Below are positions 23,901-38,463 of a DNA stretch of 64,000 nt, piece by piece (the first letter of the stretch is position 1; each line of letters opens with the position of its first letter). Made by a program: the position numbers and the translations under genes. The DNA comes from Bacteroidaceae bacterium (GTDB taxonomy: Bacteria; Bacteroidota; Bacteroidia; Bacteroidales; Bacteroidaceae): contig JAFTEV010000061.1 of the NCBI GenBank assembly GCA_017453465.1, positions 38,783-102,782 of the forward strand. Reading direction: 5' to 3'. The notes beneath the pieces are model-generated. The model was not told the DNA's origin and did no database searches. It saw nothing but the letters and a program-made list of their open reading frames with translations.

Positions 23901-26900
23901 ACCGTCGAAATCTATAGGTGCCGTCGAAGTGTATTCCTTAGAAACACTGCCAGTCGTGTCTTCCATGGTGATGAAAGCTGTCAGCCGGCGGTCGGCGGTC
24001 AGGCTCAGTTCCAGCTGCTGGCTGCCTTGGCCATGAGTCATAAATGTCATCGGCTGGCCATTGTTGTCGGGCTTAAGCATTACATCCACCGTGAACGACT
24101 TGCCTGCCAGATTGCGCGAACCTTTCGATACGGCAAAGCCATTCCCGTTGAAACGCAGGTCGGTTGAAAGCGCGATGTTGCTCGAATTGGTCTGTCCCAG
24201 CACCTGGAAATTGTTCAGTGGACGCAGATAGTTGCCTGCAATCTGTTCAGAGAAGCGCAGCATAATATCGTCGCCGATGTCCAAGATGCCATCTTCTGGC
24301 TTTGGTGTTCCGAAGAGCTGCGGACGGCGCGTGTCCTTAATTCCAGTCAAGATTTCTGACGAGCGCGTCAGGTAGCCACCACCATGGCGGCAGTAGTTCA
24401 CGGCACGCAGGTCGTACTGCTGCTCAATGGGGTCTATCTCACCGTAGAAGTTGGCCACGATGCGTCCGTCGTCCTCAATCATCTGACAAACGCCGCTGGC
24501 CTTCGCCATCAGGAGCGAATCGCTGTAGAACGAGCAGACGTTCACCCACTCCTTGTCGCCCTGATTCGACAGCTTGTACTGCAGTTCGATGTGGTCGAAG
24601 CCACGGTAGTTCACGTTGAAGCCGTCGATGACCACTGGCATGTAGTATTGCTGGAGGCGTGTGTCGAACTGCGACTCCGTGTTGATTACCCACTTGTCGC
24701 CAGGCAGCGAGATGTTCACCTTGCCCGCCGTAGGCACGAAGTGGGCAGAAAGGTAAACCGTTTGAATACGTTTCTTGTCATTGGAATCGAAGAGGCTGAT
24801 GCCTACATTTTCGTAGTCGAACTCGGCTCCTGGATAGAACTCCACTTGCTTGGTCACCACGCTGCCCGCAGGGATGTAAACAGCAGACCCGGTTCCCGAT
24901 AGTGGCACGCCTTCTATCTGCAACTTGGCACCCTTCGCGTTGGATGGGTCATTCAGGAAGTAGCTGAACACCTCTGTGGCCAGGGCTGGAGCCTCGCTCT
25001 CGTTGGCCATGTGGATGGTGAAGCGTGCAGGTTCGTCGTAGGGCACGTTGCTCACCGTCTGTTCGTCAGCCCAGATGCGTAAGCGGTCAATTTCGATGGT
25101 CTTTGCATCAAGCAGCGTGCCAGCATTGTAGTATTTCGTGAGACGCTCGTCCTCGTATGGTGCACAGGTGGCACCTCCTCGTGTGCGATAAACCAGGCTG
25201 CGGTACATCTGTGGCGTGCTGGTCATATAGCTGCACATGCCACCCAGCGTGCCAGGCACTTTGTTTTCGCCCAGCTTGATGTTCTTCACGAAGTCCTCGC
25301 TGGCATACATAAAGAGCATCTGGTTGACGTCATTCTCTTTATAGCCAGCATCCAGCAGGGCTGCACGACGCTCGTCCATCAGTTGCTGGTTGTTTTGCGT
25401 GCGATATACATCCACCGTCATGTAAGACTTCGTCGAGGGTGCCAATGTGAAACCTACCTTCTTGGTCGCCGTCTCACTCTTTCCATAATTATAATTATAG
25501 TCAACCGAAGCCACGACATTCATCTTAATACTAATAGATGTGCCGAAGGTCTTGATGTCGATTTCCATTCCGTAAGGATCACCTGTAGCTTGTTCAGTGT
25601 GTGTACTTGGTTTGGGGTTCTTTACGTTGAAGCTGCCCGATGAGAAGTTGAAGCCTGTTATCAACGGGAAGAGGAAGTAGCGACTTTCACTCTCGGCCAG
25701 TGTGAAAGCCTCGCTGTAGTTGACGCTGGAGCGTCCGTCCACATCGTAGCTCTTTACCAGGTTGCTGGCTTCCACCTTTTCGCGCTCGTTTACGGCCAGG
25801 AAGCTAATCCACGTCCAGATGTTGCGGTTCAGTGTCTGTATGGAGTCGTTCTGCGAGGCATTCTTGTCCGTGGGGTTTATTTGCTTGTAATAACCGACTT
25901 GTGCAAAGTTCTCGTCGTCCTCAGGTACGCTGCTGATGTAGGCGGGGAAACCTTGGTTGTCGGCCACGGCCTGTGCCGTCACGCTATCCGTACCGACCGA
26001 CAGCAACAGCGAGTTGCGGGTTTTGATGAGGTTCGGAATCAGCTCCTGCTCGATGTGAGACTGCGAGTGGACGAAGGTGCTGTTGATGTGTGTAGATACC
26101 TGCAGCACTTCGTCGCGCACAAGCCACACCTTCTCGCCCTTGCTGTCCTTTCCTTGAGCCAGAGCCTTCATCGTGCCCTGACGCACATTGAAGTTAATGC
26201 CAGCCTCCGAGAACGTGCCACCCTCGTGGGTCTTCAGCATCTGGTAGGTGGAGTCTGCAATGACACGCACGGCGATGGCATCCTCCACGACAGCGTTGCG
26301 TGTCATGCCGATGAATACGTCGGCATCGCGGCCTACAGCCATCTGTCCCGTGGCGGTGCTGATGCGTTCTGTGGTTTCAAAGGTATAGTTATACTGCCAA
26401 CTATTATAATAAGTGGCGACGAAGGGCATTGTGAAGAGATTCGTGCTGCTCGAACTGTTGATTTGTCCCACTTCTTGACCTCCACCAACTCCTGCCCAGA
26501 CACCGTTGTACCAGTCGCTGCCGCCGCCCTTGTTGAACGAGAGGTTCACGCCGGCCTGTGTCTTCACGTTCTGGGTGAAAGAGTAGTTCAGCTTCGTGCC
26601 GCTCTCGATGTAGGCACTGGAGCCACTGCCTGGTGGGTCGCGCAAGATGTCGATGAGGCAAATGCCGCCATCGCTCACGATGCGCCGTCCCTGTTCCTTA
26701 GGCTTCGAGGCCAGCACATAGCCACTCAGGGCTTTGCCTCCGAGGGGCTTGATGTCGTAGAAGGTGCTGTCATATTCCATGCTGATGGTGAGCGTCTTCA
26801 GTGCCATGTCGCCCTCCTCGGTAAAGGTCAGATTCTGCGGAATGAAGGAATAGACGGCTTCGCCTAAGCTGTCCAGCTGAATCTCCTTGGTCTCAGTGGT

Positions 26901-29900
26901 GCTGACAAGGCCGTTCTCCACCTGCACACGTCCGCCGGGCAGGTGCACCACGTCTGGCTCATACTGCTTGTTGTCGTTGTTCCAGAAGTATTGCTCCTCG
27001 GCAGCCAGCATCAACATGATGGGGCTTCCCGCCATGAATACGGGATGGCCGAAGCTGTAGCTCAGGGAGTCGTTCCATAGCTCGATGTCGTAGCTCTTGC
27101 CCGTGTTGTCCTGGTCGTTATACTGCTTGATGCCGAAGTAGTTCTCCCCCGTCATGTTGTACTGCTTCACTGCCAGCGTGGGCGCAGCATGATAGATGCG
27201 GTTCCAAGTGGCTGTGTCGCCGTCAACGTATTTTGTGAGGTCGAGTGTCTGTCCCACTTCGCCAGCCTGGAACAGCGTGGCGTAGCCCTGTGCATAGACC
27301 TCTGTCACTTTGTATTTCACGGGCAGCATCGGTACGAGGTATTCGCCCGTCTCTACATCGGGATAGATGACGAGGCGATGGCGATAGACATCCAACTGGC
27401 AGGTGTCAACCGGACCCACGGCATAGCGGCGATGCAGCTCGGTAACACTGGAGTTCAGCTGGTCGCGCACCAGATAGGAAGCATTGTCGCCCTCCAGCTG
27501 CATGACGATGGTGATGGAGTCGCCCAGGTTGTTGCGCGAGAGCGACTGGCCCAGCGGCAGGTCGCCCTGGTCGTCGCCACCCACCACGCGACCATGGAGC
27601 ATGACGTGAGTCTGGTCCCAGAACACATACAGGGGAATTTCTTTCTGCCAGTTATGCTTCGTTGGTTCCCTGTCGTCAGGATTCATGTAGAAGCCGTTGT
27701 TTGCAAAGACGTGACCATCTTTCACCACGCGGATGGTGTGCGAACCCTGTGGCACACTGATGGTGAAGTTACCCTGCGAGTCGCTCTGGATGGGCTGGCC
27801 AGAACCATTCTTCACGATGGCTCCATCGCGCTCAAACAGCGCACCCACCACTGGCACGCTGGTGCCCTCGTAGATTACTTGTCCAGAGAAGCGGTAATAG
27901 TTGTTTTGCGTGAAGCGCAGGTTGGTGACAAGGTTCTTGGTGTCGTCGAAAGTAGCCGACAGTGCATCCATTGCCTGCATTTCGCCAGTTATATCTACGG
28001 AGATGATGTAGGTGGCGGCACCCTGATAGATGAGTCCGCCAATCTCGAAGAAACCAGCCTCGTCGGTCACGGTGCTCTTCTCGAAAGCTCCTTCAAGGCC
28101 TCCCTTATCAGGGGTTGCCTTCACGGTGACACCAGCCATGGCTGTGCCGTCGGCCAGTCGGAGATAGCCGCGCACCATGCCGGTAGGTTCACAGCCCGCA
28201 GTAATTTCCATCCGGCTGATGTGCAGACCTTCGCACTGCGTCACGCCCTCTATAGTATATATGTACGCGTGTTGGGGTTGCGCCGTGCGGTCCATGTAGG
28301 ACATCTGGTCGTACATGTTGGCCAGCGTATCTACCTTCTCCATCATCTTGTCGTAACGCAGGATGCGGTAGTAGTCGCCCAGCCCCGTAGTCTCCCACGT
28401 CAGGGTGACGGCGGTCTGCAGGGTGTCGGCCTTCAGACTGGTAATCTGGACGTTGTTGTTGAAGGCATAGACGAAGCCCTCGTCCGCAGCTATGCGTGCA
28501 GGCACAACGCCGCCTGTGCTTACGGGCGTAAGGGGAGAGCTGCCTTGCTCTACGGTGAAGTTGAACTTATGGTCAACGCACGAGGTGGTGAGTTGCTGTG
28601 TGAAGTGTCCTGTCGCAATCTCTTCCTTCGAGAGTTCGTAACGCTCGGTATAGAGTATTTCTTCCTCGTAGTCGGGTATTGCTATGATTTGGGCGGGTAC
28701 TACAGTTCCTGCGTCGTCCACCATCCACTGCGTCTTTTCCAGTTTGAGTACCAGCTCTTCGGGAGTCATTCCTGCGGGCACGGTGTTGACATTATACCAT
28801 TTCTTGTCGTAGGTCCAGTTGTTGGTGCCAGGGAAGGATTCGCAGGTGTTTTCTTCTAATTCCAGTATGCTGGCATTCGAGGTGGTGAATCCTTTGTACT
28901 GCCCACCGTGTTCGAGGCAGTTCTCCACTGTTGTCTTGTAGTAGCCGTCGAGGGTTATGTTTCCGATGAAGGCACCAGTCCAAGACGGGCCGATGGCGTT
29001 GTTGTTGGCTATGCCGCCGTCGAAGAGGCAGTTCCGCAGGATGTTGGTAGCGGAATTGCCACACCCGACGAAGCCGCCGGCCACGTGGTCGTAAGTGTAG
29101 ATGTAGGCCGAAACGTGGCATTTGTCGATGGTGAGCGTGCCGCCGTCGGTGGAGCAGCCCACCAGTCCTGATGTGTAGCGGCTGCCCCAAACTTCACCCT
29201 TCACGTTGAGGTTGCTGATGCTGGTGGTTCCGCCTACATACTGGAAGGGAGCCATGTAGTTCTCCGGCTTGTCGAAGTCGAGGTCGAGGGTGATGGTATG
29301 GCCGTTGCCGTCGAAGTCACCCTGGTAGGGGGCATCGGCAGTACCTACGGGCTGTGCCACGGTGATGTCGGCCAGCAGGATGGCATCTACGCTCTGTCGG
29401 CCTCCTGCGGCTTTCACCTTGTTTACAAAGGTCTGCCAGTCTGCTGCGTTTTTGATGTTATAATGTGTATCCCTTTTATCTATGGACCCGGGGTCTTCGA
29501 TGGTGGTTTTCTCGATGTTCAGCACCAGCTTGGCACGGTCGTCCCAGAGCACGGTGGCGTAGGCAGAGTCGTTCTCCGTGGCCATGATGGGCATGAGGTT
29601 GCCGCCCACCAGTTCCCAGTCGGCACCCAGGGTTTCGAGCAGGTCAGTCTTTGCCTGGTCGCTCAACATCGATTTGTACAGGATGGGAACCGCTGCATTG
29701 TCGCGGACATGCCAGTTTGCATAGTCCAGTTGCTTGACCATTTCCTCGGCTGTCTTGGTGTCGACGTAGTTGGTCTCGCTCCAGTTCTGATAGCTCCAGT
29801 TGTTTTTGCTGTTGTCTGTGTTGCCGTATGCCTTGCCGCCGTTCTTGTAGTTCATGCCGGCATGATCGACATAGCTGTATTTGCCGTTCTCCAGGCAGTT

Positions 29901-32492
29901 GGTGATGACATTGGAGGTGCCGCCGTCTTCCCATCCGATAATGGCTCCCGCATAGCTGCCACGGTAGAAGAAGGTGAGTTCTCCGTCGAACAGACAGTTC
30001 GTGATGTCGTGGTTTGCACTGCCGCCATGCCCGATGAAGCCACCGACGTGGCTGGTGCTGCAATTCACTTCTGTTGATACGCGGCAGTTTTTGATGGTGT
30101 TTCTTTTTCCGCTGCTGCCGTTGCTGCTGCCCACCAGTCCGGACGAGTGTATGCCGCCCCAGATGGAGCCTGTGACGGAGAGATTCTGGATGGTGTAGTC
30201 TTTGGCATTCATGAATGGTGCCTGAAAGTCAGTGGTACCTCCAAATAGTGCCTGAATTTCGTGTCCGTTGCCGTCAAACGTGCCGTGGAACGGTGCGCTC
30301 TCCGTGCCTACTGATACTTGGTTGATGGTGATGTTGGCGTTCAGCACGGCGTTCACTTCTGCACCTTTGGCTTGGCTCACCATGTCGGCAAAGGTCTTCC
30401 AGTCGGACGAGCTGTTGATGACGAAGCGCCCCTGGTTGTCTCGGTGATTGCTGTCCATGGAGATTTGCGTACTGGAGCCATTGTAGGATTTCAGCAGGGA
30501 GCTGTACTCGATGGTGAGGTTTTGGGTGTTGTTTATGCGGGCATAGTTCTCGCAGCCGTCTGTCTTGGTGGCGATGTTGCTGGGGGCGAAGAGGCATCGT
30601 GACACTTTCACCCTGCCTGTACTCCACCCCACAAGACCGCCGTTGTGGGAGCACTCGGTCCCTTCAAACGAGCCGTCGAAAAGGCAGTTCCTGAGTGTAA
30701 TCTGTTGGCTGCTTCCACCGTTGGCTACAAAGCCGCCATTCGTGGCATCGCCCTTGACGGTGCTGGTCAGCATGACGGAAGAGCGACAACGCTCAATCAG
30801 GAGTGTGGCACCATTGACTACGTTCCCGACAAGGCCGCTGATGAACTTCTGGCTACAGCTGATGGAGCCTGCCACGTGGAGGTCGCGCAGGGTGGCATTT
30901 CCCACATAGCGGAAGGGTGCGGCATATTGCTGGGTGAAAGCCACGGTGTCCTTCTCTGTGGGTGGCTTGGGGTTGAAGGTAAGCGTGTGGCCGTTGCCGT
31001 GGAAGGTGCCCTGGTAGGGATGTGCGGCAGTGCCTATCATCCTGAGGCTGTCGCCCAGGTCGATGTCGGCAGCCATGACGACATCCCACTTCAGTGTCTG
31101 TCCTGCGTTCACCGAGTCGGCCAGGGTGTTCCAGTCTTCTGCACTGCGCAGCACAACGCGCCCCCTGTCATCGTAGGCCAGTCCGTCGGCCTGGGCGGTG
31201 AGTCCCTTTCCGCCCAGCGTGAAGCTGAAGTCGAGGGCATGGTGTTGCTGATTCCACGCCTTGCGCCCCACGGTGGCTGTCTGCACGGTGGGCAGGTGGA
31301 GCACAAGGGGCATACGCACGATGGCGTAGGTATTGGGTGCCCATTCCCAGAGCGAGGTGCAGGTGCGGCGCACGCGATAATAGACGGGCTTGCCCTCGTA
31401 GGCCGTGGTCAGGTTCTCGTCGGTCACGCTGTACTGCCGGCTGCTGGGGTTGTAGGTTATCTGCCCGATGGTGACCCACTGGCCATCCAGTGCCGGAAGG
31501 CCCGATGTGCACCGCTGCACCTCCCAGAAGTCATTCGTCATCAGGTCGGCCCAGTTGCGGTCGGGCACAGTCCATGTGAGCAGTGCGGAGCCGTCGGGCT
31601 GGAGAGTGACGTTCAAGCCCGCAGCATTGTGGAGCATGGTGAGGTCGAAGGGTGTCGATTGTGTGGTGCGCACCTTCTTCTCCGAGTCCTCGTAGGTGGA
31701 TTCGAGGAAGAAGTCCTTGTAGCAATGGTCAACGGGCAGGTAGATGTAGCCCGACACGTTGGGGTCGAGTTCCATCGTGTGGTGCAGTTCATCGGCTCCG
31801 TTCACCTCCGTGTAGTAGGCCGAGATGCTCTGGATGGTGTTGGAGGGCATCGTATAGACAAGCATCATGCTGCCGGCATGTGCGGCATCGTAACCCAGCA
31901 TGGGGGACTGCACACTGGGATAGAGGAGCGGGGGCATGGCCGGAATCTCCAGCGTCGTGTTGTTGATGGTGATGTTTTTCGACGATTCGCCCGCAGGCCC
32001 TATGGGGCCGTTGCCCGTCTTGTGGATGCTCCACGAGATGGTCACCTTCTTGCCGCGATACTTGTCGGGGATGGTCCACATGAGGTGCAGGATGCTGTAG
32101 TCCGTGCCGCTCACCCTGGGCACTACCCACTTGGTCTGGGTGTTGGTGATGCTGATGGTGGAGTAGTTTCGGTCGCGCTCCAGAATCATGTCGCCGTCCA
32201 CGCCCTTGTTGCCCCAGACATAGGGGTCATCGTCGCCTGTGTCGTCAGACTTGTAGTAGAACAGCGTTTCGCGGTTACCACCCTCGATGGTGATATAGAC
32301 GTAGCCCTTGTCAATCCAGCTGTCGTAGCCGTCGGCATCATAGCAGGGCATTTCCAGTTTCAGCTTGTCCGTGCCGTAGAGCATGACGGTGTATCGCCAA
32401 GCGTCTTCGGGTGCATTCGAGGCAACAAGCCGTAAGCTCCCCGCCATGACGAGGCTAAGCAGGGCGAGCATTCGCAGGTAGGTTGTCTTCAT
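20907..32492 (-). CDS. Giant multidomain surface protein (GLUG repeats, LamG domains)
   Basis: About 3861 aa, started at the ATG at 32492, which opens a signal peptide (MKTTYLRMLALLSLVMAGSL). The frame reaches 32564, but the promoter at 32535-32564 supports 32492. In rough order: Ig/FN3-like N-terminus; three GLUG/beta-helix blocks (about 465-645, 680-935, 995-1245), each with a (Y/F)(Q/H)G(T/D)F(D/H)GNGH motif; FN3-like region; two carboxypeptidase-regulatory-like domains (about 1435-1500, 1530-1600); a long unassigned middle; two LamG/concanavalin-like domains (about 2780-2960 and 2995-3155); and a C-terminal tail (WYTLSGIKLAKRPTTTGVYI). It is probably exported to the cell surface as an adhesin or glycan-contact protein. 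No enzymatic motif was seen. Confidence 0.85.
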   Translation of the reverse strand: MKTTYLRMLALLSLVMAGSLRLVASNAPEDAWRYTVMLYGTDKLKLEMPCYDADGYDSWIDKGYVYITIEGGNRETLFYYKSDDTGDDDPYVWGNKGVDGDMILERDRNYSTISITNTQTKWVVPRVSGTDYSILHLMWTIPDKYRGKKVTISWSIHKTGNGPIGPAGESSKNITINNTTLEIPAMPPLLYPSVQSPMLGYDAAHAGSMMLVYTMPSNTIQSISAYYTEVNGADELHHTMELDPNVSGYIYLPVDHCYKDFFLESTYEDSEKKVRTTQSTPFDLTMLHNAAGLNVTLQPDGSALLTWTVPDRNWADLMTNDFWEVQRCTSGLPALDGQWVTIGQITYNPSSRQYSVTDENLTTAYEGKPVYYRVRRTCTSLWEWAPNTYAIVRMPLVLHLPTVQTATVGRKAWNQQHHALDFSFTLGGKGLTAQADGLAYDDRGRVVLRSAEDWNTLADSVNAGQTLKWDVVMAADIDLGDSLRMIGTAAHPYQGTFHGNGHTLTFNPKPPTEKDTVAFTQQYAAPFRYVGNATLRDLHVAGSISCSQKFISGLVGNVVNGATLLIERCRSSVMLTSTVKGDATNGGFVANGGSSQQITLRNCLFDGSFEGTECSHNGGLVGWSTGRVKVSRCLFAPSNIATKTDGCENYARINNTQNLTIEYSSLLKSYNGSSTQISMDSNHRDNQGRFVINSSSDWKTFADMVSQAKGAEVNAVLNANITINQVSVGTESAPFHGTFDGNGHEIQALFGGTTDFQAPFMNAKDYTIQNLSVTGSIWGGIHSSGLVGSSNGSSGKRNTIKNCRVSTEVNCSTSHVGGFIGHGGSANHDITNCLFDGELTFFYRGSYAGAIIGWEDGGTSNVITNCLENGKYSYVDHAGMNYKNGGKAYGNTDNSKNNWSYQNWSETNYVDTKTAEEMVKQLDYANWHVRDNAAVPILYKSMLSDQAKTDLLETLGADWELVGGNLMPIMATENDSAYATVLWDDRAKLVLNIEKTTIEDPGSIDKRDTHYNIKNAADWQTFVNKVKAAGGRQSVDAILLADITVAQPVGTADAPYQGDFDGNGHTITLDLDFDKPENYMAPFQYVGGTTSISNLNVKGEVWGSRYTSGLVGCSTDGGTLTIDKCHVSAYIYTYDHVAGGFVGCGNSATNILRNCLFDGGIANNNAIGPSWTGAFIGNITLDGYYKTTVENCLEHGGQYKGFTTSNASILELEENTCESFPGTNNWTYDKKWYNVNTVPAGMTPEELVLKLEKTQWMVDDAGTVVPAQIIAIPDYEEEILYTERYELSKEEIATGHFTQQLTTSCVDHKFNFTVEQGSSPLTPVSTGGVVPARIAADEGFVYAFNNNVQITSLKADTLQTAVTLTWETTGLGDYYRILRYDKMMEKVDTLANMYDQMSYMDRTAQPQHAYIYTIEGVTQCEGLHISRMEITAGCEPTGMVRGYLRLADGTAMAGVTVKATPDKGGLEGAFEKSTVTDEAGFFEIGGLIYQGAATYIISVDITGEMQAMDALSATFDDTKNLVTNLRFTQNNYYRFSGQVIYEGTSVPVVGALFERDGAIVKNGSGQPIQSDSQGNFTISVPQGSHTIRVVKDGHVFANNGFYMNPDDREPTKHNWQKEIPLYVFWDQTHVMLHGRVVGGDDQGDLPLGQSLSRNNLGDSITIVMQLEGDNASYLVRDQLNSSVTELHRRYAVGPVDTCQLDVYRHRLVIYPDVETGEYLVPMLPVKYKVTEVYAQGYATLFQAGEVGQTLDLTKYVDGDTATWNRIYHAAPTLAVKQYNMTGENYFGIKQYNDQDNTGKSYDIELWNDSLSYSFGHPVFMAGSPIMLMLAAEEQYFWNNDNKQYEPDVVHLPGGRVQVENGLVSTTETKEIQLDSLGEAVYSFIPQNLTFTEEGDMALKTLTISMEYDSTFYDIKPLGGKALSGYVLASKPKEQGRRIVSDGGICLIDILRDPPGSGSSAYIESGTKLNYSFTQNVKTQAGVNLSFNKGGGSDWYNGVWAGVGGGQEVGQINSSSSTNLFTMPFVATYYNSWQYNYTFETTERISTATGQMAVGRDADVFIGMTRNAVVEDAIAVRVIADSTYQMLKTHEGGTFSEAGINFNVRQGTMKALAQGKDSKGEKVWLVRDEVLQVSTHINSTFVHSQSHIEQELIPNLIKTRNSLLLSVGTDSVTAQAVADNQGFPAYISSVPEDDENFAQVGYYKQINPTDKNASQNDSIQTLNRNIWTWISFLAVNEREKVEASNLVKSYDVDGRSSVNYSEAFTLAESESRYFLFPLITGFNFSSGSFNVKNPKPSTHTEQATGDPYGMEIDIKTFGTSISIKMNVVASVDYNYNYGKSETATKKVGFTLAPSTKSYMTVDVYRTQNNQQLMDERRAALLDAGYKENDVNQMLFMYASEDFVKNIKLGENKVPGTLGGMCSYMTSTPQMYRSLVYRTRGGATCAPYEDERLTKYYNAGTLLDAKTIEIDRLRIWADEQTVSNVPYDEPARFTIHMANESEAPALATEVFSYFLNDPSNAKGAKLQIEGVPLSGTGSAVYIPAGSVVTKQVEFYPGAEFDYENVGISLFDSNDKKRIQTVYLSAHFVPTAGKVNISLPGDKWVINTESQFDTRLQQYYMPVVIDGFNVNYRGFDHIELQYKLSNQGDKEWVNVCSFYSDSLLMAKASGVCQMIEDDGRIVANFYGEIDPIEQQYDLRAVNYCRHGGGYLTRSSEILTGIKDTRRPQLFGTPKPEDGILDIGDDIMLRFSEQIAGNYLRPLNNFQVLGQTNSSNIALSTDLRFNGNGFAVSKGSRNLAGKSFTVDVMLKPDNNGQPMTFMTHGQGSQQLELSLTADRRLTAFITMEDTTGSVSKEYTSTAPIDFDGLHRVQITFQNNQDSQTTGISFYDGTKQIGQFTHPACYEGFGPLVLGGNQPYFGRGYKAPNYEGEMLEFRLWGRVLSQSEMSDYSMKRLTGYELGLLDNYPLNEGNGDYCYNTVESGSDLTLTGASWKVPDGIGMKLDGQQGFRLAPDKFQRWSHQDYTLMFWFRTSDLEGTLLANGRAEDEAEASEHFNFGVKGGSLDLHLGGLDIPTSTYVSDGQWHHTALTVCRSRNVGCLYVDNELRSTFAVDTLGGIKGNQLAAGATYESGSIKTPITGHIDEIAMFEMALPENSIKAFSRITPTGEEMGLMAYLNFSQNELQTDNQQRLMPTGVSLKRYKDKTTGQLTAQRDTIVAQDMVDRLADRTLYAPMRGTQSLENIKYSFVADSKDLLINLDVPDERIEKTHVYIVVRDVADMQGNLLASPVAMDLYVYRNPLRWNKKTLSLSTVYGEETTFEATIQNLSGKARRYSLEGPPVWMTASRTSGSVGALGEETITFTISPYINIGNFDEVISLVGEDGMNEPLPINIKVRREAPDWAVDQSLLQGNLTMNVIANVNIGGVIMNDPEDRLAVFGEDHRTLGVAGLDADPNNAEGGVAYLTIFGSSAEETPLRYEFYDASTGVIHVLLSSPEVSTFRLGSIVGTPDEPYQFEANNGVVQTIQLQDGWNWISLNVEPVRLPIGQLLGRATKWAVGDGLEIIKADGTSAQISYKQLYNADDPKNPILAWDEADKVVKIDPEQMFRFYSHGDKTAYISGFPIYDVLTVHSGWNRISYLAQLNLPVGTALADYTDKASAGDIIKSQSEFAVLSVDGDGNKSWKGTLKYMKVGEGYMLKRNAAGSASFTYPIYFGASRYNGGSSLARARYVNRSGTSMTMVAKAKGVDAAEGDVLTAWRGAEVCGVAVADTEGVFYLNIGDAKAATSELIFTLEHDDKVVATTSSHQMSYQPDAAFGTPDDPTSIDFVTSDELTADGWYTLSGIKLAKRPTTTGVYIHNNEKVIIK

Positions 32493-33410: not shown

Positions 33411-33647
33411 ATGGATTTAAGTAAAGAAGACAAAATCAACCATCTAATGGGAATGTATTTGGACAGACAGACGATGAGGGAAGAAGAAACCTTGCTGTTG
33501 CTTCAGGAATTGTCAGAGTCGGCGGAATTAAGGGCGCAATTGAATTTTGCGGCGGCTGGACTTGAACAAATGAAGCGAAAGCGAAGGAGGGAGCACCCTA
33601 TTTGTGAAAGAGATTCTCATTTAATATCTGTTAACAAGATGAAGTAA
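33411..33647 (+). CDS. Small protein with anti-sigma-like N-terminal motif
   Basis: 78 aa from the ATG at 33411. An in-frame ATG at 33375 would add 12 residues. The segment INHLMGMYLDRQTMREEETL, followed by LLLLQELSESAELRAQL, resembles the short helical start of Bacteroidetes anti-sigma/FecR-type proteins (xxYLDGxxxxEExxxLxxLL). There is no membrane segment or zinc motif. The C-terminus is basic (KRKRRREHP). It sits about 200 bp upstream of a sigma-70-like gene in the same direction, the usual neighbour for such a protein. The assignment is inference from a short match. Confidence 0.45.
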   Translation: MDLSKEDKINHLMGMYLDRQTMREEETLLLLQELSESAELRAQLNFAAAGLEQMKRKRRREHPICERDSHLISVNKMK

Positions 33648-33728
33648 GTGTAATCTCTTGACATTCAGACGAAGAATTTTTTATTGAATGTAAAATCCAA
33701 ATCGGAAACAAATTAGGAGATTTCCCTA

Positions 33729-33736
33729 TAACTTTG
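33729..33736 (+). promoter_or_regulatory. -7 box before the sigma-like gene
   Basis: TAACTTTG. No TTG at the right distance. It overlaps the in-frame ATG at 33734, which argues for the start at 33845. Confidence 0.4.
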
Positions 33737-33844
33737 CAGCAAAAGAAAGCGAAAAGTTATGGGGAATCTTTTTATCCGCGTGTGACTTCCCAGCAGCCAG
33801 AAAGAACCTACTTACGCCCACATATAAAAAACTTGCCAGAGATT

Positions 33845-34891
33845 ATGAAAAAGAACAGAACTGAAGCTGAACAGCAGGAAATTGACTATGTGATGAATCT
33901 GCTGATGAATGTGAACGAAATGCAATGTGAACTGACAAAGAAGGAGAACCTTGCCATCCGTGATGCTATCATGAAGTATGATGAGGTGGCATCGGTGTTC
34001 TTCTTCCAAACAATCTCGCCCATGATTTGGGGATTCGTGAAAGAACTGAAGGAAACTTACAAGGCAGACGTACCATATAATGATGTGGCAACGATTGTCT
34101 ATACCGAAATTTACAATGGTGGCCGCTGGAGCCGCATTAAGGGGTATCTTGGGAATGCCTCATTCTTCGGCTGGGTATCTCGCGTCGCCGCACAGGTGCT
34201 GATTCCGCAACTTGAGGCATCGGGCCTTGTTTCGTTGTCTCGCGTCCGCACGTCATCGAATACGTCGCTGACGCTGAAGTCGATGAAGTACAGGGAGGAG
34301 CGTCGGCTGGTGGTCCGGCTGGTGAAGGTGGTACAGCTGAGGAAGCTGCTGCACTGCATCTATGTGGCGCGCATGACGGAGGATGAGACAAAGCGTATGC
34401 TGGGCATGAGCGACGAGGTGTTCAAAGAGTCGTTCTCGCTGGCTCAGCAGATGCTGAAGGAGCAACTGATTGCCCGTAAATATTACTACTATGCAAGGCC
34501 GAATGGGGGCAAGGTGGTCAACCTTGTGAGCCTGGCTCTGAGCGACAAGGTGCAGCTGGTTAAGACCAACTCCATCGAAACGGTGTATAAGGAAATCAAG
34601 ATGAAGTATGATGAAGACGAGCATGATTTCCTGAAGGAACAACTGGACCCGCTCTATCCAGGGCTGCCCGTCAAGGCTCAGTGGAACCAGTTTGTGATTG
34701 ACTTTGCCTGCGAGAAGATGGACTGGAGCGAAGAGGACAAGGCGGTATGGGTTGCCCGCTTCCGTGATGGGGAGTCGCCCGTGGAGCTTGCTGACCGCCT
34801 GGGACACCCCCGTTCCTGGGTGGACAATCGCTACAGCCGCCTGAACAAGCAGCTTGCAATTGCTATCCGTCTGTGGTGGAATGAACGGTAA
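33845..34891 (+). CDS. Sigma-70-like protein with extra C-terminal HTH
   Basis: 348 aa from the ATG at 33845. The frame extends to 33734, but a -7 box overlaps that codon. The segment around residues 50-130 (SVFFFQTISPMIWGFVKELK, YNDVATIVYTEIYNGG, FFGWVSRVAAQVLI) looks like sigma region 2. Residues about 165-215 (LRKLLHCIYVARMTEDETKR, then MLGMSDEVFKES) look like region 4. A further HTH-like segment lies at the end (GESPVELADRLGHPRSWVDN). Similarity is at motif level only, so it could be another nucleic-acid-binding regulator. It converges on the AAA+ gene across a palindromic repeat. Confidence 0.5.
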   Translation: MKKNRTEAEQQEIDYVMNLLMNVNEMQCELTKKENLAIRDAIMKYDEVASVFFFQTISPMIWGFVKELKETYKADVPYNDVATIVYTEIYNGGRWSRIKGYLGNASFFGWVSRVAAQVLIPQLEASGLVSLSRVRTSSNTSLTLKSMKYREERRLVVRLVKVVQLRKLLHCIYVARMTEDETKRMLGMSDEVFKESFSLAQQMLKEQLIARKYYYYARPNGGKVVNLVSLALSDKVQLVKTNSIETVYKEIKMKYDEDEHDFLKEQLDPLYPGLPVKAQWNQFVIDFACEKMDWSEEDKAVWVARFRDGESPVELADRLGHPRSWVDNRYSRLNKQLAIAIRLWWNER

Positions 34892-34894
34892 GAA

Positions 34895-35004
34895 GGTCGC
34901 TTTGCTTTGCGGTTATACGGTTTTTACGGTCGCTTTGCTTTATGGTTTTGCGGTTATACGGTGACACTGACGTATAACCGCAAAACCGTATAACCGCAGA
35001 ACCG
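34895..35004. repeat. CGGTTATACGG palindromic element, copy 1
   Basis: The left arm reiterates GCGGTTATACGGTTTTTACGG and GGTTTTGCGGTTATACGG. The right arm reiterates CGTATAACCGCAAAACCG. It fills the gap between two convergent genes and probably serves as a two-way transcription stop. Confidence 0.75.
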
Positions 35005-35006
35005 TT

Positions 35007-36761
35007 CTATGTGTTGAATCCGATGCGCTTGCGCGTAGGAGTAAGGTTCTCTATCTTTTGGCGTACCTGCTCGTAGGAGCGGAGCTGCTCTTCGGTGACA
35101 GAGGGACGGGTGTGCTGGATGATGTCTTCCAGTATGGACTGACTGATGGGCCTGGCTTCGTGGAGTCCGCTCTTGATGCTGTCGTAGAAACAGCGGCGGG
35201 CGGCTTCCTTGGCGCAGTAGCTGACGTCGGACGACGTGAAGTTTTCTGACAACCGTGACAGGGCATCGTAGTTGATGTCGGCTTCGTGGGCACGGTTTTT
35301 CAGTTCCAGCTGGAAGATTTCTTTGCGTGTCTGCTGGTCGGGCAGCCCTACATAGACGAGGCTATCGACACGGCCTCGGCGCAGTGCTCCGTAGTCCAGG
35401 CGCGTGGGGTAGTTGGTCATCATCAGCACGTAGATGCCTCGGTCGGCACAGTTGTTGAGCTGGGTGAGCAGTTCGTTCACTTCTCCTGCCTGGTGGTGGG
35501 AGTGGTCGGCCTCGCGGCTGGGCAGCAGGCTGTCGCATTCGTCGATGGCGAGAATGACGGGCGACTGCTTTTCCAGCTTCTTGAAGAGGTCGGCAATGAG
35601 CTGCTGTGAGCCGTGGATGTAGCTGGAGGCCAGCGTGGAGGGGGTGACGAGGCAGAAGTTGGTGCCAGCTTCTTCGGCCACGCGCTCGGCCACGTAGGTC
35701 TTGCCTACGCCTGGAGGCCCGTACATCAGGGTGACGTTGGGCGGAGCCACGCCCAGCTGCTTGGCCAGCTCTTGGTTCTTGAGGATGGAGACGAGGTTGC
35801 GGTCGAGCAGTTCCTTCAGTTCGCTGCATCCGCCAATGGCGGCAAAGCCTTTGCCCTGGCGTGGTGCAATTTGCACGCTGACGTGCTCCCGCTCCTGTGT
35901 GGTGTTTTGGGCGTGCTGCCCCAGGACTGTGGGCATCTGGGGCGCACGGCTCAGCTGTGGCCGAGGCACAGCTTTGGTGGAAATGCCGCTCGATAGGGCT
36001 TCGCGCAGCTGGCTGTGTGTGGCATAGCGCAGGGCTGGCTTGCGCTGGCAACCTTTCTGAATGACCTGCTGGATGTAGGGGGCGGGCTGTGTCTGTAGCT
36101 TGCTGAACATGTATTCCACGACGCGGCTGGTGGAGTAGATGTCGGCTTTGGCTGTGAAGGTGCCCAGCTGTGTTTCGGGTGCGCGGTAGTGTGGGTTGAG
36201 TTCGCTGGTGGGGAAGGGTGGCTTGCCCATGTATTCGAATCCCGCATGGGTGAGTCCGCAGATTTGCACGTTGTAGTTTCCGACGGCATCTTTGCTGACG
36301 TAGATGTTTTGCGGAATGAGGTTGTAGTGCCCACCGCCCGAAAAGAGTTGGCTGATGTGCATGCAGACGCTCGTGATGCTGCGGCTGATGAGCAGCAGTG
36401 TGTCGCTGGTGATGTCTTCTTCGGGTTTGGTGAGGTACAGGTCAAGCCGTGTGCCCTGGATGAGCTGTGTGCAGGCCCACTGGATGGTTCGCCCGTCGTC
36501 GGTCTGTAAGCAGCCGTCCTCCACGTAGGCTGGTATGCCGCTGAAGTTGGCATGGCGCAGGGCTTCGATTTCGCGCACAATGTCGTCATCGGTGCCGCTG
36601 CGCTGTTGCCATTTCTGGACATCGTATGCAATGAGGGCGTACTGTTTCGACGCATTGTCCTCAATCCTATATACCTCGCGATAGTCGTAGTGCCCATCGT
36701 CTAATCGGCTCAATACCTTATACTGGCCGATGTGTGTGTTGTCTTGCAGTATGCTGTTCAT
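35007..36761 (-). CDS. Pseudokinase-AAA+ ATPase fusion
   Basis: 584 aa. Residues about 10-260 have the outline of a Ser/Thr kinase: an alphaC-like REIEALRHANFSGIP, the catalytic loop position H145-Y-N-L-I-P-Q-N152, the DFG position I-C-G-L (167-170), and an intact APE (194-196) followed by KADIYS. The glycine loop, the catalytic Asp (now N147), the loop Lys (now I149) and the DFG Asp (now C168) are lost, so it should be a pseudokinase. Residues about 305-540 are a Cdc48/FtsH-type AAA+ domain: Walker A GPPGVGKT (348-355), Walker B ILAIDE (403-408), sensor-1 N450 and candidate Arg fingers R461/R462. It follows two YbjN-like genes. Confidence 0.82.
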   Translation of the reverse strand: MNSILQDNTHIGQYKVLSRLDDGHYDYREVYRIEDNASKQYALIAYDVQKWQQRSGTDDDIVREIEALRHANFSGIPAYVEDGCLQTDDGRTIQWACTQLIQGTRLDLYLTKPEEDITSDTLLLISRSITSVCMHISQLFSGGGHYNLIPQNIYVSKDAVGNYNVQICGLTHAGFEYMGKPPFPTSELNPHYRAPETQLGTFTAKADIYSTSRVVEYMFSKLQTQPAPYIQQVIQKGCQRKPALRYATHSQLREALSSGISTKAVPRPQLSRAPQMPTVLGQHAQNTTQEREHVSVQIAPRQGKGFAAIGGCSELKELLDRNLVSILKNQELAKQLGVAPPNVTLMYGPPGVGKTYVAERVAEEAGTNFCLVTPSTLASSYIHGSQQLIADLFKKLEKQSPVILAIDECDSLLPSREADHSHHQAGEVNELLTQLNNCADRGIYVLMMTNYPTRLDYGALRRGRVDSLVYVGLPDQQTRKEIFQLELKNRAHEADINYDALSRLSENFTSSDVSYCAKEAARRCFYDSIKSGLHEARPISQSILEDIIQHTRPSVTEEQLRSYEQVRQKIENLTPTRKRIGFNT

Positions 36762-36766
36762 TGATT

Positions 36767-36846
36767 TGACAATTCCTAATTTGACAATTTGACAATTTAC
36801 AATTTTACAATTTATGAATTCGGATTTCGGATTTCGTAATTCGTAT
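36767..36846. repeat. TTGACAATT and AATTCGTAATTCG word repeats
   Basis: Reiterated AATTTGACAATTTGACAATT, then TTTACAATTTTACAATTTATG, then GAATTCGGATTTCGG/AATTCGTAATTCG words. They fill the gap between the AAA+ gene start and the YbjN-like gene behind which it lies. Confidence 0.55.
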
Positions 36847-37230
36847 TTATGTTTCTTCGTCTTGTTTTCTCATGAGTTCGTAGAAACGCTGGCGGGCGTT
36901 CTCCATCAGTCCGAGCATGAGGGGAATCTTGGTCTCAGGGTAGTTGTCGTCCACAAAGTCTTCGCAGTTGACCCACACGGAGTCTTCGTCAACGGTGAGC
37001 TTGGCCAGTGCCTTTTCCTGATTGACGGTGTTGGCACATTCAAGCACTTTTTGCCGATTCTCGTCGGTCACGTCATAGAAAATCATGACGAGTTGCAGCA
37101 GTTCGTCGCAGGCGTTGTGCATGAAGATATAGTTGACTAATTGGAACTTGAAACAGATGTTTTCATCGACTTCCTGATAGCGGAAACCTCCTTCATTGAG
37201 GAACTTAATAATGATTTCTTTTGATGTCAT
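36847..37230 (-). CDS. YbjN/type III chaperone-like protein
   Basis: 127 aa, acidic, no signal peptide. The pattern of an N-terminal helix (TSKEIIIKFLNEGGFRYQEV), a strand pair (NICFKFQLVNYIFMHN), YDVTDENRQKVLECAN and DSVWVNCEDFVDD fits the YbjN/CesT-like fold of small chaperone-like proteins. It is paralogous to the next upstream product (VTDEN and DSVW occur in both, at matching places). Its job is unknown. Its position before the pseudokinase-AAA+ gene suggests an adaptor or client-binding partner (inference). Confidence 0.6.
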   Translation of the reverse strand: MTSKEIIIKFLNEGGFRYQEVDENICFKFQLVNYIFMHNACDELLQLVMIFYDVTDENRQKVLECANTVNQEKALAKLTVDEDSVWVNCEDFVDDNYPETKIPLMLGLMENARQRFYELMRKQDEET

Positions 37231-37239
37231 AGCTAATTT

Positions 37240-37294
37240 TACAATTTATGAATTCGTAATTCGTATTTCGTAATTCGTAATTCGTATTTCGGAT
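37240..37294. repeat. AATTCGTAATTCG word repeat
   Basis: AATTCGTAATTCGTATTTCG units are reiterated between the two YbjN-like genes. The same words occur at 36812-36846. Confidence 0.55.
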
Positions 37295-37699
37295 TTATAC
37301 TTCTTCGTCATAATTCTCCAGTTCCGCATAGAACCACTTGAGTGCGGCGGCCATTGTGCGGATGATGTGTTCTACGGTGGCTTCGGTGATTGCAGTGCCG
37401 TCTTCTTGGTAGTGTTCGTAGAAAATCCAGACGCTGTCCGTGCAGATGGCTGCTTTGATGTACTTGATGTTGAATCCGAGTTGCTGAATCTGGTTGAGCA
37501 GGATAGGCTTGTTCTCGTCGGTCACACTGAAGACTCGTGGGATGGCAAAGCGCACGAAGTTCTCGTCACCGTCGTTGTCCATCAAGAGATAGGTCTTTCC
37601 ACGATAGTCAAACTTGAAGTCTGTCCCCTCTCCGTCAATGTCTTTTGGCGAAAAGCCCAATGCTTGTAGATGTTCTACGATTAATTCTGTTGTGTTCAT
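37295..37699 (-). CDS. YbjN/type III chaperone-like protein
   Basis: 134 aa. The layout matches its paralogue at 36847-37230: an N-terminal helix (NTTELIVEHLQALGFSPKDI), strands (DFKFDYRGKTYLLMDN), FSVTDENKPILLNQIQQLGF, DSVWIFYEHYQED, and a C-terminal helix. It has no signal peptide or catalytic motif. It is the first gene of the leftward YbjN-YbjN-(pseudokinase-AAA+) set. No consensus promoter was found upstream, but a hairpin at 37748-37771 lies about 50 nt before the start. Confidence 0.6.
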   Translation of the reverse strand: MNTTELIVEHLQALGFSPKDIDGEGTDFKFDYRGKTYLLMDNDGDENFVRFAIPRVFSVTDENKPILLNQIQQLGFNIKYIKAAICTDSVWIFYEHYQEDGTAITEATVEHIIRTMAAALKWFYAELENYDEEV

Positions 37700-37771: not shown

Positions 37772-37799
37772 GATAATTTTTTGCTTCTATCAGAAAGGA

Positions 37800-37966
37800 T
37801 AGTGAAAAGTGAAGAGTGAAAAGTGAAAATTTTTAGTGAAAAGTGAAGAGTGAAAAGTGAAAAATCTAAGTTACTGGGGCTAAACGCAGCCTAATGCCGA
37901 CTAAACTGTAACTTAGATTTTTCACTTTTCACTTTTCACTCTTCACTCTTCACTTTTCACTTTTAT
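37800..37966. repeat. GTGAAAAGTGAA palindromic element, copy 2
   Basis: The left arm has about eight reiterations of GTGAAAAGTGAAGAGTG-type words ending AAAAATCTAAGTTACTGG. The centre contains GGGGCTAAACGCAGCC. The right arm is TAACTTAGATTTTTCAC plus reiterated TTCACTCTTCAC. It is the longest copy and abuts the nitroreductase stop codon. Confidence 0.8.
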
Positions 37967-38463
37967 TTCCCAAGGATTTCCTCCATCGTTTTCCGCTTCT
38001 TGACGGTAGCTTCGACGGCGGGGTAGCCAATGGGGATGATGACAGCAGGTTCTTCGTTCTGGGGCAGGGCGAAGAGCTGGCTGCAAAGGGCAGCATCGAA
38101 GTTGCAGACCCAGCAGGTACCCAGTCCTTGCTCGGTGGCAGCGAGGCAGAGGTGTTCCACGGCAATGGCGATGTCGATGTTGCCGTGTGGTTTGCCGTCG
38201 GCGCGTACCCATTCTTCATCGTGCAGGATGGAGGCAACGATGTAGAGTGGGGCAGTGGCGAACCAGTCGCGGTTGTAGCACTGCTGAAGTTTGGCTTTGT
38301 CTGCCACGCTGCTGAAGATGCGGAAACGCCATGGCTGACGGTTTACAGCCGAGGGCGCCATGCGCACGCATTCCATCACGTAGTTGAGTTTCTCTTGTTC
38401 CACAGCTTTGTCCTGATAATTGCGGCAGCTGTAGCGATTCTGTGTAAGGGTGAGGAAGTTCAT
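37963..38463 (-). CDS. Nitroreductase family protein
   Basis: 166 aa, a compact FMN-dependent nitroreductase-fold protein. The FMN phosphate-binding start (RYSCRNY) is present, followed by MAPSAVNRQPWRF, the expected SxxNxQPWRF signature. A later AVEHLCLAATEQGLGTCWV segment is the conserved helix with the G-x-G-(T/S)-C-W motif. Family members reduce nitro groups, flavins or quinones with NAD(P)H; the substrate cannot be told. It lies 9 nt downstream of the transglutaminase-like gene and is probably co-transcribed with it. Its last codons touch the palindromic repeat. Confidence 0.88.
   Translation of the reverse strand: MNFLTLTQNRYSCRNYQDKAVEQEKLNYVMECVRMAPSAVNRQPWRFRIFSSVADKAKLQQCYNRDWFATAPLYIVASILHDEEWVRADGKPHGNIDIAIAVEHLCLAATEQGLGTCWVCNFDAALCSQLFALPQNEEPAVIIPIGYPAVEATVKKRKTMEEILGK

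What the first reader, a model, noticed from the sequence alone, without database searches (positions are those of the whole stretch)
33411..37699. Candidate new signalling module: pseudokinase-AAA+ with YbjN pair beside a sigma-like pair
One protein joins a kinase fold that has lost catalytic Asp, loop Lys and DFG Asp (N147, I149, C168) to an intact AAA+ engine. It is preceded by two paralogous small chaperone-like proteins and faces a sigma-70-like gene with a small anti-sigma-like neighbour. A working model: the pseudokinase senses a ligand or phosphoprotein, the YbjN-like proteins act as adaptors, and the AAA+ domain remodels a target, possibly the sigma-like complex. I know of no described system with this set.
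Basis: partly seen in the sequence, partly recalled or inferred. Interest (0 to 1): 0.75.

Follow-up and report, generated by a model that had tools for sequence, protein, structure and literature searches.

The report
Dead-kinase AAA+ remodelling motor with chaperones
A Bacteroidales-type genome carries a protein-remodelling motor fused to a kinase that has lost its active site, beside two small chaperone-like proteins; relatives range from better-preserved kinases with Hsp70 partners to motors with no kinase at all.

Summary
Gene C (35007-36761, minus strand) joins a kinase-like domain to an intact Cdc48/p97-type AAA+ motor. Two co-directional, paralogous YbjN/TY-chaperone-like genes (D, E) precede it; a convergent small gene and sigma-like gene (A, B) lie beside it. 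In 62 family loci the AAA gene has an Hsp70 gene (18) or YbjN genes (34), never both (10 neither); 5 of 5 fusion loci fetched outside the order have Hsp70. Kinase states differ by context: Hsp70 type mostly keeps VAIK Lys and DFG Asp; one-YbjN fusions keep HRD Asp as well; the five two-YbjN fusions, the window's among them, lost all three; their sister branch of 17 has no kinase. All 53 YbjN genes are co-directional with the AAA gene. The sigma-like gene is a real but optional neighbour: beside the AAA/YbjN genes in 4 loci, unlinked in 4. Most likely mechanism (inferred): YbjN pair as client adaptors, dead kinase as non-catalytic docking or sensing cap, AAA+ as unfoldase. The client is unknown; the sigma-like complex is one candidate. 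Seven paper searches listed no description of the fusion or its operons.

The parts
33411..33647 (+). Gene A, 78 aa; anti-sigma-like only by recalled resemblance; conserved with B and often P447
   Evidence: ORF; 64% identical over 75 aa in L032; homologues in L148 (E=1.7e-9), L171 (5e-9) and L168 (8.8e-7), each near a B gene; no family match
33845..34891 (+). Gene B, 348 aa from the ATG that aligns with relatives (the frame is open from TTG 33734); sigma-70-like, with a second HTH of region-4 kind at the C-terminus
   Evidence: NCBIfam sigma70-ECF E=3.4e-7, below cut-off; profile A3 has two PDB hits, both sigma factors, E 0.86 and 1; low-confidence model (mean pLDDT 52.9), 8 of whose top 10 Foldseek rows are sigma factors, none at E<=0.001; start by alignment A3
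34908..35003 (.). Inverted repeats between the convergent ends of B and C; possible two-way terminator
   Evidence: I11, I12, I14
35007..36761 (-). Gene C, 584 aa: kinase-like domain (about 1-265) with dead active site, linker, Cdc48/p97-type AAA+ (about 303-565), tail RKRIGF
36847..37230 (-). Gene D, 127 aa, YbjN/TY-chaperone-like; [quoted passage not shown]
   Evidence: (E=2.8e-4)
37295..37699 (-). Gene E, 134 aa, second YbjN-like paralogue, member of the 22-row E-type branch (100/99)
   Evidence: (E=0.036)
37835..37947 (.). Long inverted repeat upstream of E (40-nt arms, 95% complementary), before the nitroreductase gene
   Evidence: I1

Best explanation
C is an ATP-driven protein-remodelling machine of the Cdc48/p97 kind (probably a hexamer, inferred) whose N-terminal kinase fold no longer catalyses. 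D and E are TY-chaperone-type adaptors, perhaps a D/E pair (inferred), that bind a disordered stretch of a client and dock on the dead-kinase cap, handing the client to the pore. Across the phylum the fusion stands in an Hsp70 operon, mostly with a TerB-like gene; in Bacteroidales branches YbjN adaptors stand in Hsp70's place. In the branch with two YbjN the kinase has lost its nucleotide contacts in one subclade (the window's) and is missing in the other. Shown: fold assignments, residue loss, intact AAA motifs, exclusive contexts, co-direction, matching membership of the AAA and E-type YbjN branches. Inferred: order of events, oligomer, docking, threading, client.
For: AAA motifs: Walker A 60/60, Walker B DE 59/60, R.GR 58/60, pore-loop aromatic 53/60 (L044 and L134 left out). 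Nearest solved kin by sequence and by model are p97/Cdc48 and Vps4. VAIK Lys, HRD Asp and DFG Asp all lost in 5 of 5 two-YbjN fusions, 0 of 12 one-YbjN, 2 of 24 Hsp70-type, 3 of 6 others. The dead site is itself conserved in the four closest proteins (GGGHYNL-P-N), with dN/dS 0.35 and 0.26 in two pairs. Hsp70 at 18, YbjN at 34, both at 0 of 62 loci. 53 of 53 YbjN co-directional; an E-type branch of 22 rows (5 pseudokinase, 17 kinase-less) comes from the same 22 loci that form the AAA branch (100/97). Kinase-less AAA keeps two detected YbjN in 14 and one in 3 of 17 loci, so AAA plus YbjN is the durable core.
Against: No experiment, and no complex could be predicted here. The C model is weak (mean pLDDT 57.1) and its fold search returned AAA rows only, so it says nothing of the kinase part. 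In the AAA tree the one-YbjN and two-YbjN branches come off an unresolved fork and the root is one very long FtsH row, so the order of events is not shown; it leans on the argument that a dead site does not regrow. The kinase part evolves faster than the AAA part (dN/dS 0.35 against 0.07), which also fits slow decay. Ten of 62 loci have neither partner, some at contig ends.
Confidence: 0.5

Rival explanations
1. A sigma-control device: the AAA/YbjN machine frees or destroys the sigma-like protein B, held by A, so that sensing a stress changes transcription.
For: B is beside the AAA/YbjN genes in 4 loci of three lineages: window and L032; L114 (same strand, 12 bp from the fusion); L148 (same strand, one AAA gene between). 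Of 6 of 301 family genomes with a B of 90 bits or more, 5 hold the AAA family, P=9e-5; without the two genomes used in the B profile 3 of 4, P=0.0046. In the order sample both B genomes hold it, one of them the window's own.
Against: 18 of the 22 two-YbjN loci have no B within six genes. B with A and/or P447 stands apart from AAA genes at L168, L169 and L171, and B alone at L170. The 90-bit line was set after the result: at the call's own limit (E<=1e-5) 14 genomes match, of which 8 hold the AAA family. L114 and L148 were found by looking beside AAA genes. In the window B is convergent with C. Sigma activity is unproven.
Confidence: 0.2
2. An anti-phage or ADP-ribose-linked conflict system: the AAA/YbjN pair rescues or removes modified host proteins.
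For: Near NrtR, ADP-ribosylglycohydrolase, NADAR/Gp30.3, DUF1810 or DSP-phosphatase genes: 6 of 17 kinase-less two-YbjN loci and 5 of 8 loci of no clear context, against 1 of 23 Hsp70-type (6/17 against 1/23, Fisher P=0.029) and 0 of 12 one-YbjN (families). A published scheme links TY-chaperones to such systems (PMC9503650 sec. 3.8). Single Hsp70-type neighbours match PglX, BrxC, DpdF, ZorA, PsyrT and PsyrA models and one operon sits beside BREX genes on a plasmid.
Against: None of the 9 markers lies within 7.5 kb of the window gene; among the five two-YbjN fusions only L114 has any (DUF1810, PP2C). Markers were picked after seeing the loci. The window's neighbours are nitroreductase, transglutaminase-like, GH30 and HD genes. 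Of two-YbjN neighbours, the families shown were GajB and RTasHel matches in 2 proteins each, which look like housekeeping UvrD helicases (25 of 69 families shown).
Confidence: 0.2
3. A decaying remnant: the kinase-like domain is on its way out and does nothing; only AAA plus YbjN matters.
For: The sister branch has lost the domain (17 loci); other lineages show separate decay (L116-L118, L143, L145); the domain evolves five times faster than the AAA part by dN/dS.
Against: dN/dS still 0.35 and 0.26; the altered site is conserved over proteins 43-74% identical to the window's; the frame is open in all four.
Confidence: 0.15

Closest known systems
Cdc48/p97/VAT and Vps4-type AAA+ ATPases
   Same: Walker A/B, arginine fingers, pore-loop aromatic, lid; nearest PDB kin by sequence and by model
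   Different: One AAA domain; a kinase-like domain at the N-terminus; YbjN or Hsp70 partners
YbjN / TY-chaperone superfamily (AmyR, DR1245, TY-Chap1)
   Same: Profile matches at family level; YbjN-type structures resemble T3SS chaperones (PMC3575483, passages; PMC5398634, search listing and abstract start)
   Different: Here duplicated and tied to an AAA+ gene; the text of PMC9503650 that names TY-Chap has 0 occurrences of AAA+ and Hsp70
ARG-centric ADP-ribose systems with TY-chaperones (PMC9503650, sec. 3.8 read)
   Same: Some kinase-less relatives have ARG, NrtR, NADAR-type, phosphatase, vWA and TY-chaperone neighbours
   Different: No such gene at the window; no AAA+ named there
Hsp70-AAA+ bi-chaperone systems (DnaK-ClpB, recalled)
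   Same: Hsp70 next to an AAA+ gene in Hsp70-type relatives
   Different: Cdc48-type, kinase-fused AAA+; coiled-coil and TerB-like partners; no Hsp70 at the window
IetAS and MADS defence proteins
   Same: AAA part hits IetA/IteA models, kinase part hits mad6/MAD6
   Different: Far below curated cut-offs (IteA 79.8 against 510; MAD6 45.4 against 460)

Membership tests
Active protein kinase | VAIK Lys, HRD Asp, DFG Asp | tested here: not met
   I44, N147, G169 in the window; none of the three in 5 of 5 two-YbjN fusions
Protein kinase fold (homology) | Match to kinase profiles | tested here: met
   Through the family: profile A4 hits PDB kinases at E=2.7e-33; six of eight homologues scanned pass the Pfam cut-off, L033 and L034 do not; the window protein alone is under it, 18.8 against 31.7
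Classic AAA (Cdc48/Vps4 type) | Walker A, Walker B, arginine fingers, pore loop | tested here: met
   Pfam AAA 2.4e-28
Cdc48/p97 proper | Two AAA domains; subfamily cut-off | tested here: not met
   TIGR01243 150.8 bits against 802.65; one AAA domain
YbjN / TY-chaperone superfamily | Profile match | tested here: met
   At family level: 8 of 14 YbjN, 6 of 14 TY-Chap1 at E<=0.01; D 21.6 bits against 22, E 14.7
YbjN / TY-chaperone superfamily | T3SS-chaperone-like fold, dimer | not tested
Sigma-70 family (B) | Region 2 and region 4 | tested here: inconclusive
   30 bits against 42.9; sigma-dominated fold rows on a weak model, none significant
Anti-sigma factor (A) | Family match or binding to B | tested here: inconclusive
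   No family match; A and B lie together in 5 loci
IetAS defence system | IteA curated score | tested here: not met
   79.8 against 510; an IetS partner was not looked for
ARG-centric ADP-ribose system | ADP-ribosylglycohydrolase and companions nearby | tested here: not met
   0 of 9 markers within 7.5 kb of the window gene
Hsp70-AAA+ bi-chaperone operon | Hsp70 gene beside the AAA gene | tested here: not met
   None at the window; present at 18 of 62 loci

The most novel reading that the evidence does not exclude
An undescribed class of bacterial remodelling machines scattered over Bacteroidota: a kinase fused to a Cdc48-type AAA+, run by Hsp70/TerB-type partners in one context and by TY-chaperone adaptors in the other, in which adaptor duplication, kinase death and kinase loss can be laid side by side, with a sigma-like factor as a regulated client in one branch.
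Probability: 0.3. Interest if true: 0.8.

Novelty: new variant of a known kind. Interest (0 to 1): 0.62.

Why it matters
Relatives offer a natural panel in which a kinase-like domain on an AAA+ motor is better preserved, dead or absent, with Hsp70, one YbjN or two YbjN as partner. That makes a general question testable: what does a pseudokinase do on a remodelling motor? It gives YbjN-type chaperones a concrete ATPase partner, and it points to an Hsp70/kinase-AAA/TerB-like operon, seen beside defence genes in some loci, for which my paper searches listed no description.

Tried and rejected
Sigma pair as core part: rejected, optional. Mobile element: 0 of 22 phage records and 1 of 364 plasmid records with a match cover 80% of C; L032 shares nitroreductase, transglutaminase-like, GH30 and HD neighbours, so the locus is at one place in two species. 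ADP-ribose reading for the window itself: no marker. VIA-align second look: covers residues 207-576 only, so nothing on the kinase part. A count with DFG at residue 168 was one column off and was redone at 169. The long helical gene (P550) of the Hsp70 operon looks J-domain-like at its start by eye; not tested. dN/dS by YN00 failed; only NG86 is used, and the linker gave no value. Paper searches: 7; two searches returned no paper; I read listings of the rest and saw none that describes the fusion, the YbjN-AAA pair or the Hsp70 operon. Most subscription journals are not held.

Left out or unclear: ten of 62 loci fit neither context (L044, L116, L117, L129, L133, L134, L142, L145, L149, L150), L044 and L134 cut by contig ends. 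L044, L134 and the truncated L115 are not in the AAA tree; L044 and L134 are not in the AAA motif counts. Some rows are near copies (L036 and L037; L103 and L104). The G671 hit with 3 stops was not fetched. In the genome searches only a few candidates per genome were scored, so presence counts are lower bounds. Neighbour scans had part of the genes: 72 of 76 of 180 aa or more around 18 Hsp70-type loci; 78 of 90 of 300 aa or more around the two-YbjN loci.
Full report
The locus. On the minus strand E (37295-37699), D (36847-37230) and C (35007-36761) follow each other with gaps of 64 and 85 bp; A (33411-33647) and B (33845-34891) run towards them on the plus strand, and inverted repeats lie between the ends of B and C. 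C has a clear AAA domain (2.4e-28) and a kinase region that only just shows in Pfam (18.8 bits, cut-off 31.7). D and E are weak YbjN matches. B is a weak sigma match. A has no match. The host is taken to be Bacteroidales because the congener G004 has a contig of the same length (204,863) as the record behind L032, titled uncultured Bacteroidales.

Relatives. A profile of nine full-length homologues (A1) separates members (best match per genome 265 bits or more) from FtsH (about 210 and less): 35 of 301 genomes sampled from the family and 20 of 393 from the order, the window genome counted in both; two of the 20 (G676, G492) are distant and one (G671) is broken by stops. A kinase-only profile (A4) found, besides the window genome, five genomes of 395 sampled from the phylum with a fusion of about 600 aa at 120 bits or more; kinase-less members could not show there. 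Stretches around 62 loci, window included, were compared.

Two contexts. 18 of 62 loci have an Hsp70-like gene (PF00012 5.9e-66 in L135), 12 of the 18 with a TerB-like gene (best TerB E=1.3e-4, under the cut-off), and usually a coiled-coil gene and a longer helical gene. 34 of 62 have one or two YbjN-like genes. None has both; 10 have neither. All five fusion loci fetched from outside the order are of the Hsp70 type, and a Haliscomenobacter plasmid carries the same operon, annotated Hsp70 family, AAA family ATPase and TerB family, next to BREX genes.

The trees. In the AAA tree (60 rows, one of them FtsH) Hsp70-type proteins lie at the base and do not form one clade; one-YbjN fusions lie in a 17-row branch (94/93) with some proteins of no clear context; a 22-row branch (100/97) holds five fusions with two YbjN (window, L032, L033, L034, L114; 100/84) and 17 kinase-less AAA proteins (100/100). 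The fork between the last two branches and a few Hsp70-type rows is unresolved and the root is one long FtsH row, so the order of events is not shown. A dead site is not expected to regrow, so the kinase was probably better preserved at the fusion. The YbjN tree (53 rows, midpoint drawn) has an E-type branch (22 rows, 100/99) and a D side that also holds the 12 single-copy YbjN. All 53 are co-directional with the AAA gene.

Kinase residues, counted on one alignment (Hsp70-type includes L183-L187 and L189). VAIK Lys: 22/24 Hsp70-type, 12/12 one-YbjN, 0/5 two-YbjN, 3/6 others. HRD Asp: 3/24 (Glu in 14), 12/12, 0/5, 1/6. DFG Asp: 18/24, 10/12, 0/5, 2/6. Catalytic-loop Lys: 0/24, 0/12, 0/5, 1/6. 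So the textbook loop Lys is missing nearly everywhere, most relatives keep the nucleotide contacts, and the window's clade has lost them. Pkinase scores of the proteins scanned fall in the same order: 114, 128, 134 (L041, L135, L183), 96 and 92 (L036, L103), 46 (L114), 28 (L033), 18.8 (window), 16.5 (L034). The altered loop is conserved in the four closest proteins (GGGHYNL-P-N) and the domain is under purifying selection, though faster than the AAA part (window-L032 0.35 against 0.07; L033-L034 0.26 against 0.04).

The sigma-like neighbour. B, A and a third gene (P447, absent beside the window pair) form a small recurrent set. B lies beside the AAA/YbjN genes at the window, L032, L114 and L148, on the same strand in the last two. 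In 301 family genomes 6 have a B of 90 bits or more and 5 of these hold the AAA family (P=9e-5; excluding the two genomes in the profile, 3 of 4, P=0.0046). At E<=1e-5 the count is 14 genomes, 8 with the AAA family. L114 and L148 were found by looking beside AAA genes, so adjacency is not an unbiased count; four other B genes are unlinked on their contigs, some short (L168-L171). The link is real but optional.

Wider context. ADP-ribose and phosphatase-type genes lie near 6 of 17 kinase-less two-YbjN loci and 5 of 8 loci without clear context, against 1 of 23 Hsp70-type, 0 of 12 one-YbjN and 1 of 5 two-YbjN fusions (markers picked after inspection), reminiscent of the ARG-centric systems of PMC9503650 (section 3.8 read). 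Among 72 neighbours of Hsp70-type genes, defence models such as PglX, BrxC, DpdF, ZorA, PsyrT and PsyrA each match one protein (25 of 86 families shown). The window has neither kind of neighbour.

Mechanism. I take AAA plus YbjN as the core, because it outlasts the kinase, and the dead kinase as a docking or sensing cap. Oligomer, threading, adaptor role and client are inferred. Literature seen: passages of PMC7159879, PMC11090510 and PMC3575483; passages and section 3.8 of PMC9503650; search listing and abstract start of PMC5398634.

Noticed in passing
L135 1743-9195; L183 1914-9234; L189 2631-10156: A conserved gene run, long helical gene - coiled-coil gene - Hsp70 - kinase-AAA - TerB-like, in one case beside BREX genes on a Haliscomenobacter plasmid.
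   Followed up: partly
L040, L119, L120, L121, L127, L148: Kinase-less AAA plus YbjN genes near NrtR, ADP-ribosylglycohydrolase, NADAR/Gp30.3, PP2C, phosphatase or vWA genes.
   Followed up: partly
L168 580-3425, L169 5803-8497, L171 7116-8940: Sigma-like B with A and/or P447 but no AAA or YbjN gene in the stretch: the set may be a module of its own.
   Followed up: partly
L125 3827-5257, L148 8654-10276: A second AAA gene (477 and 541 aa) near the kinase-less AAA/YbjN genes.
   Followed up: no
window 20907-32492: One ORF of about 3861 aa on the minus strand, surface-protein-like by eye, on the side of A where L032 has P447.
   Followed up: no
window 37792-37969: Dense inverted AGTGAAAAGTGAA-type repeats upstream of E; role unknown.
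   Followed up: no
L033 827-1330, L034 1053-1574, L038 8338-8892, L148 6959-7435: E-type YbjN proteins with long acidic C-terminal tails that the window's E lacks.
   Followed up: no
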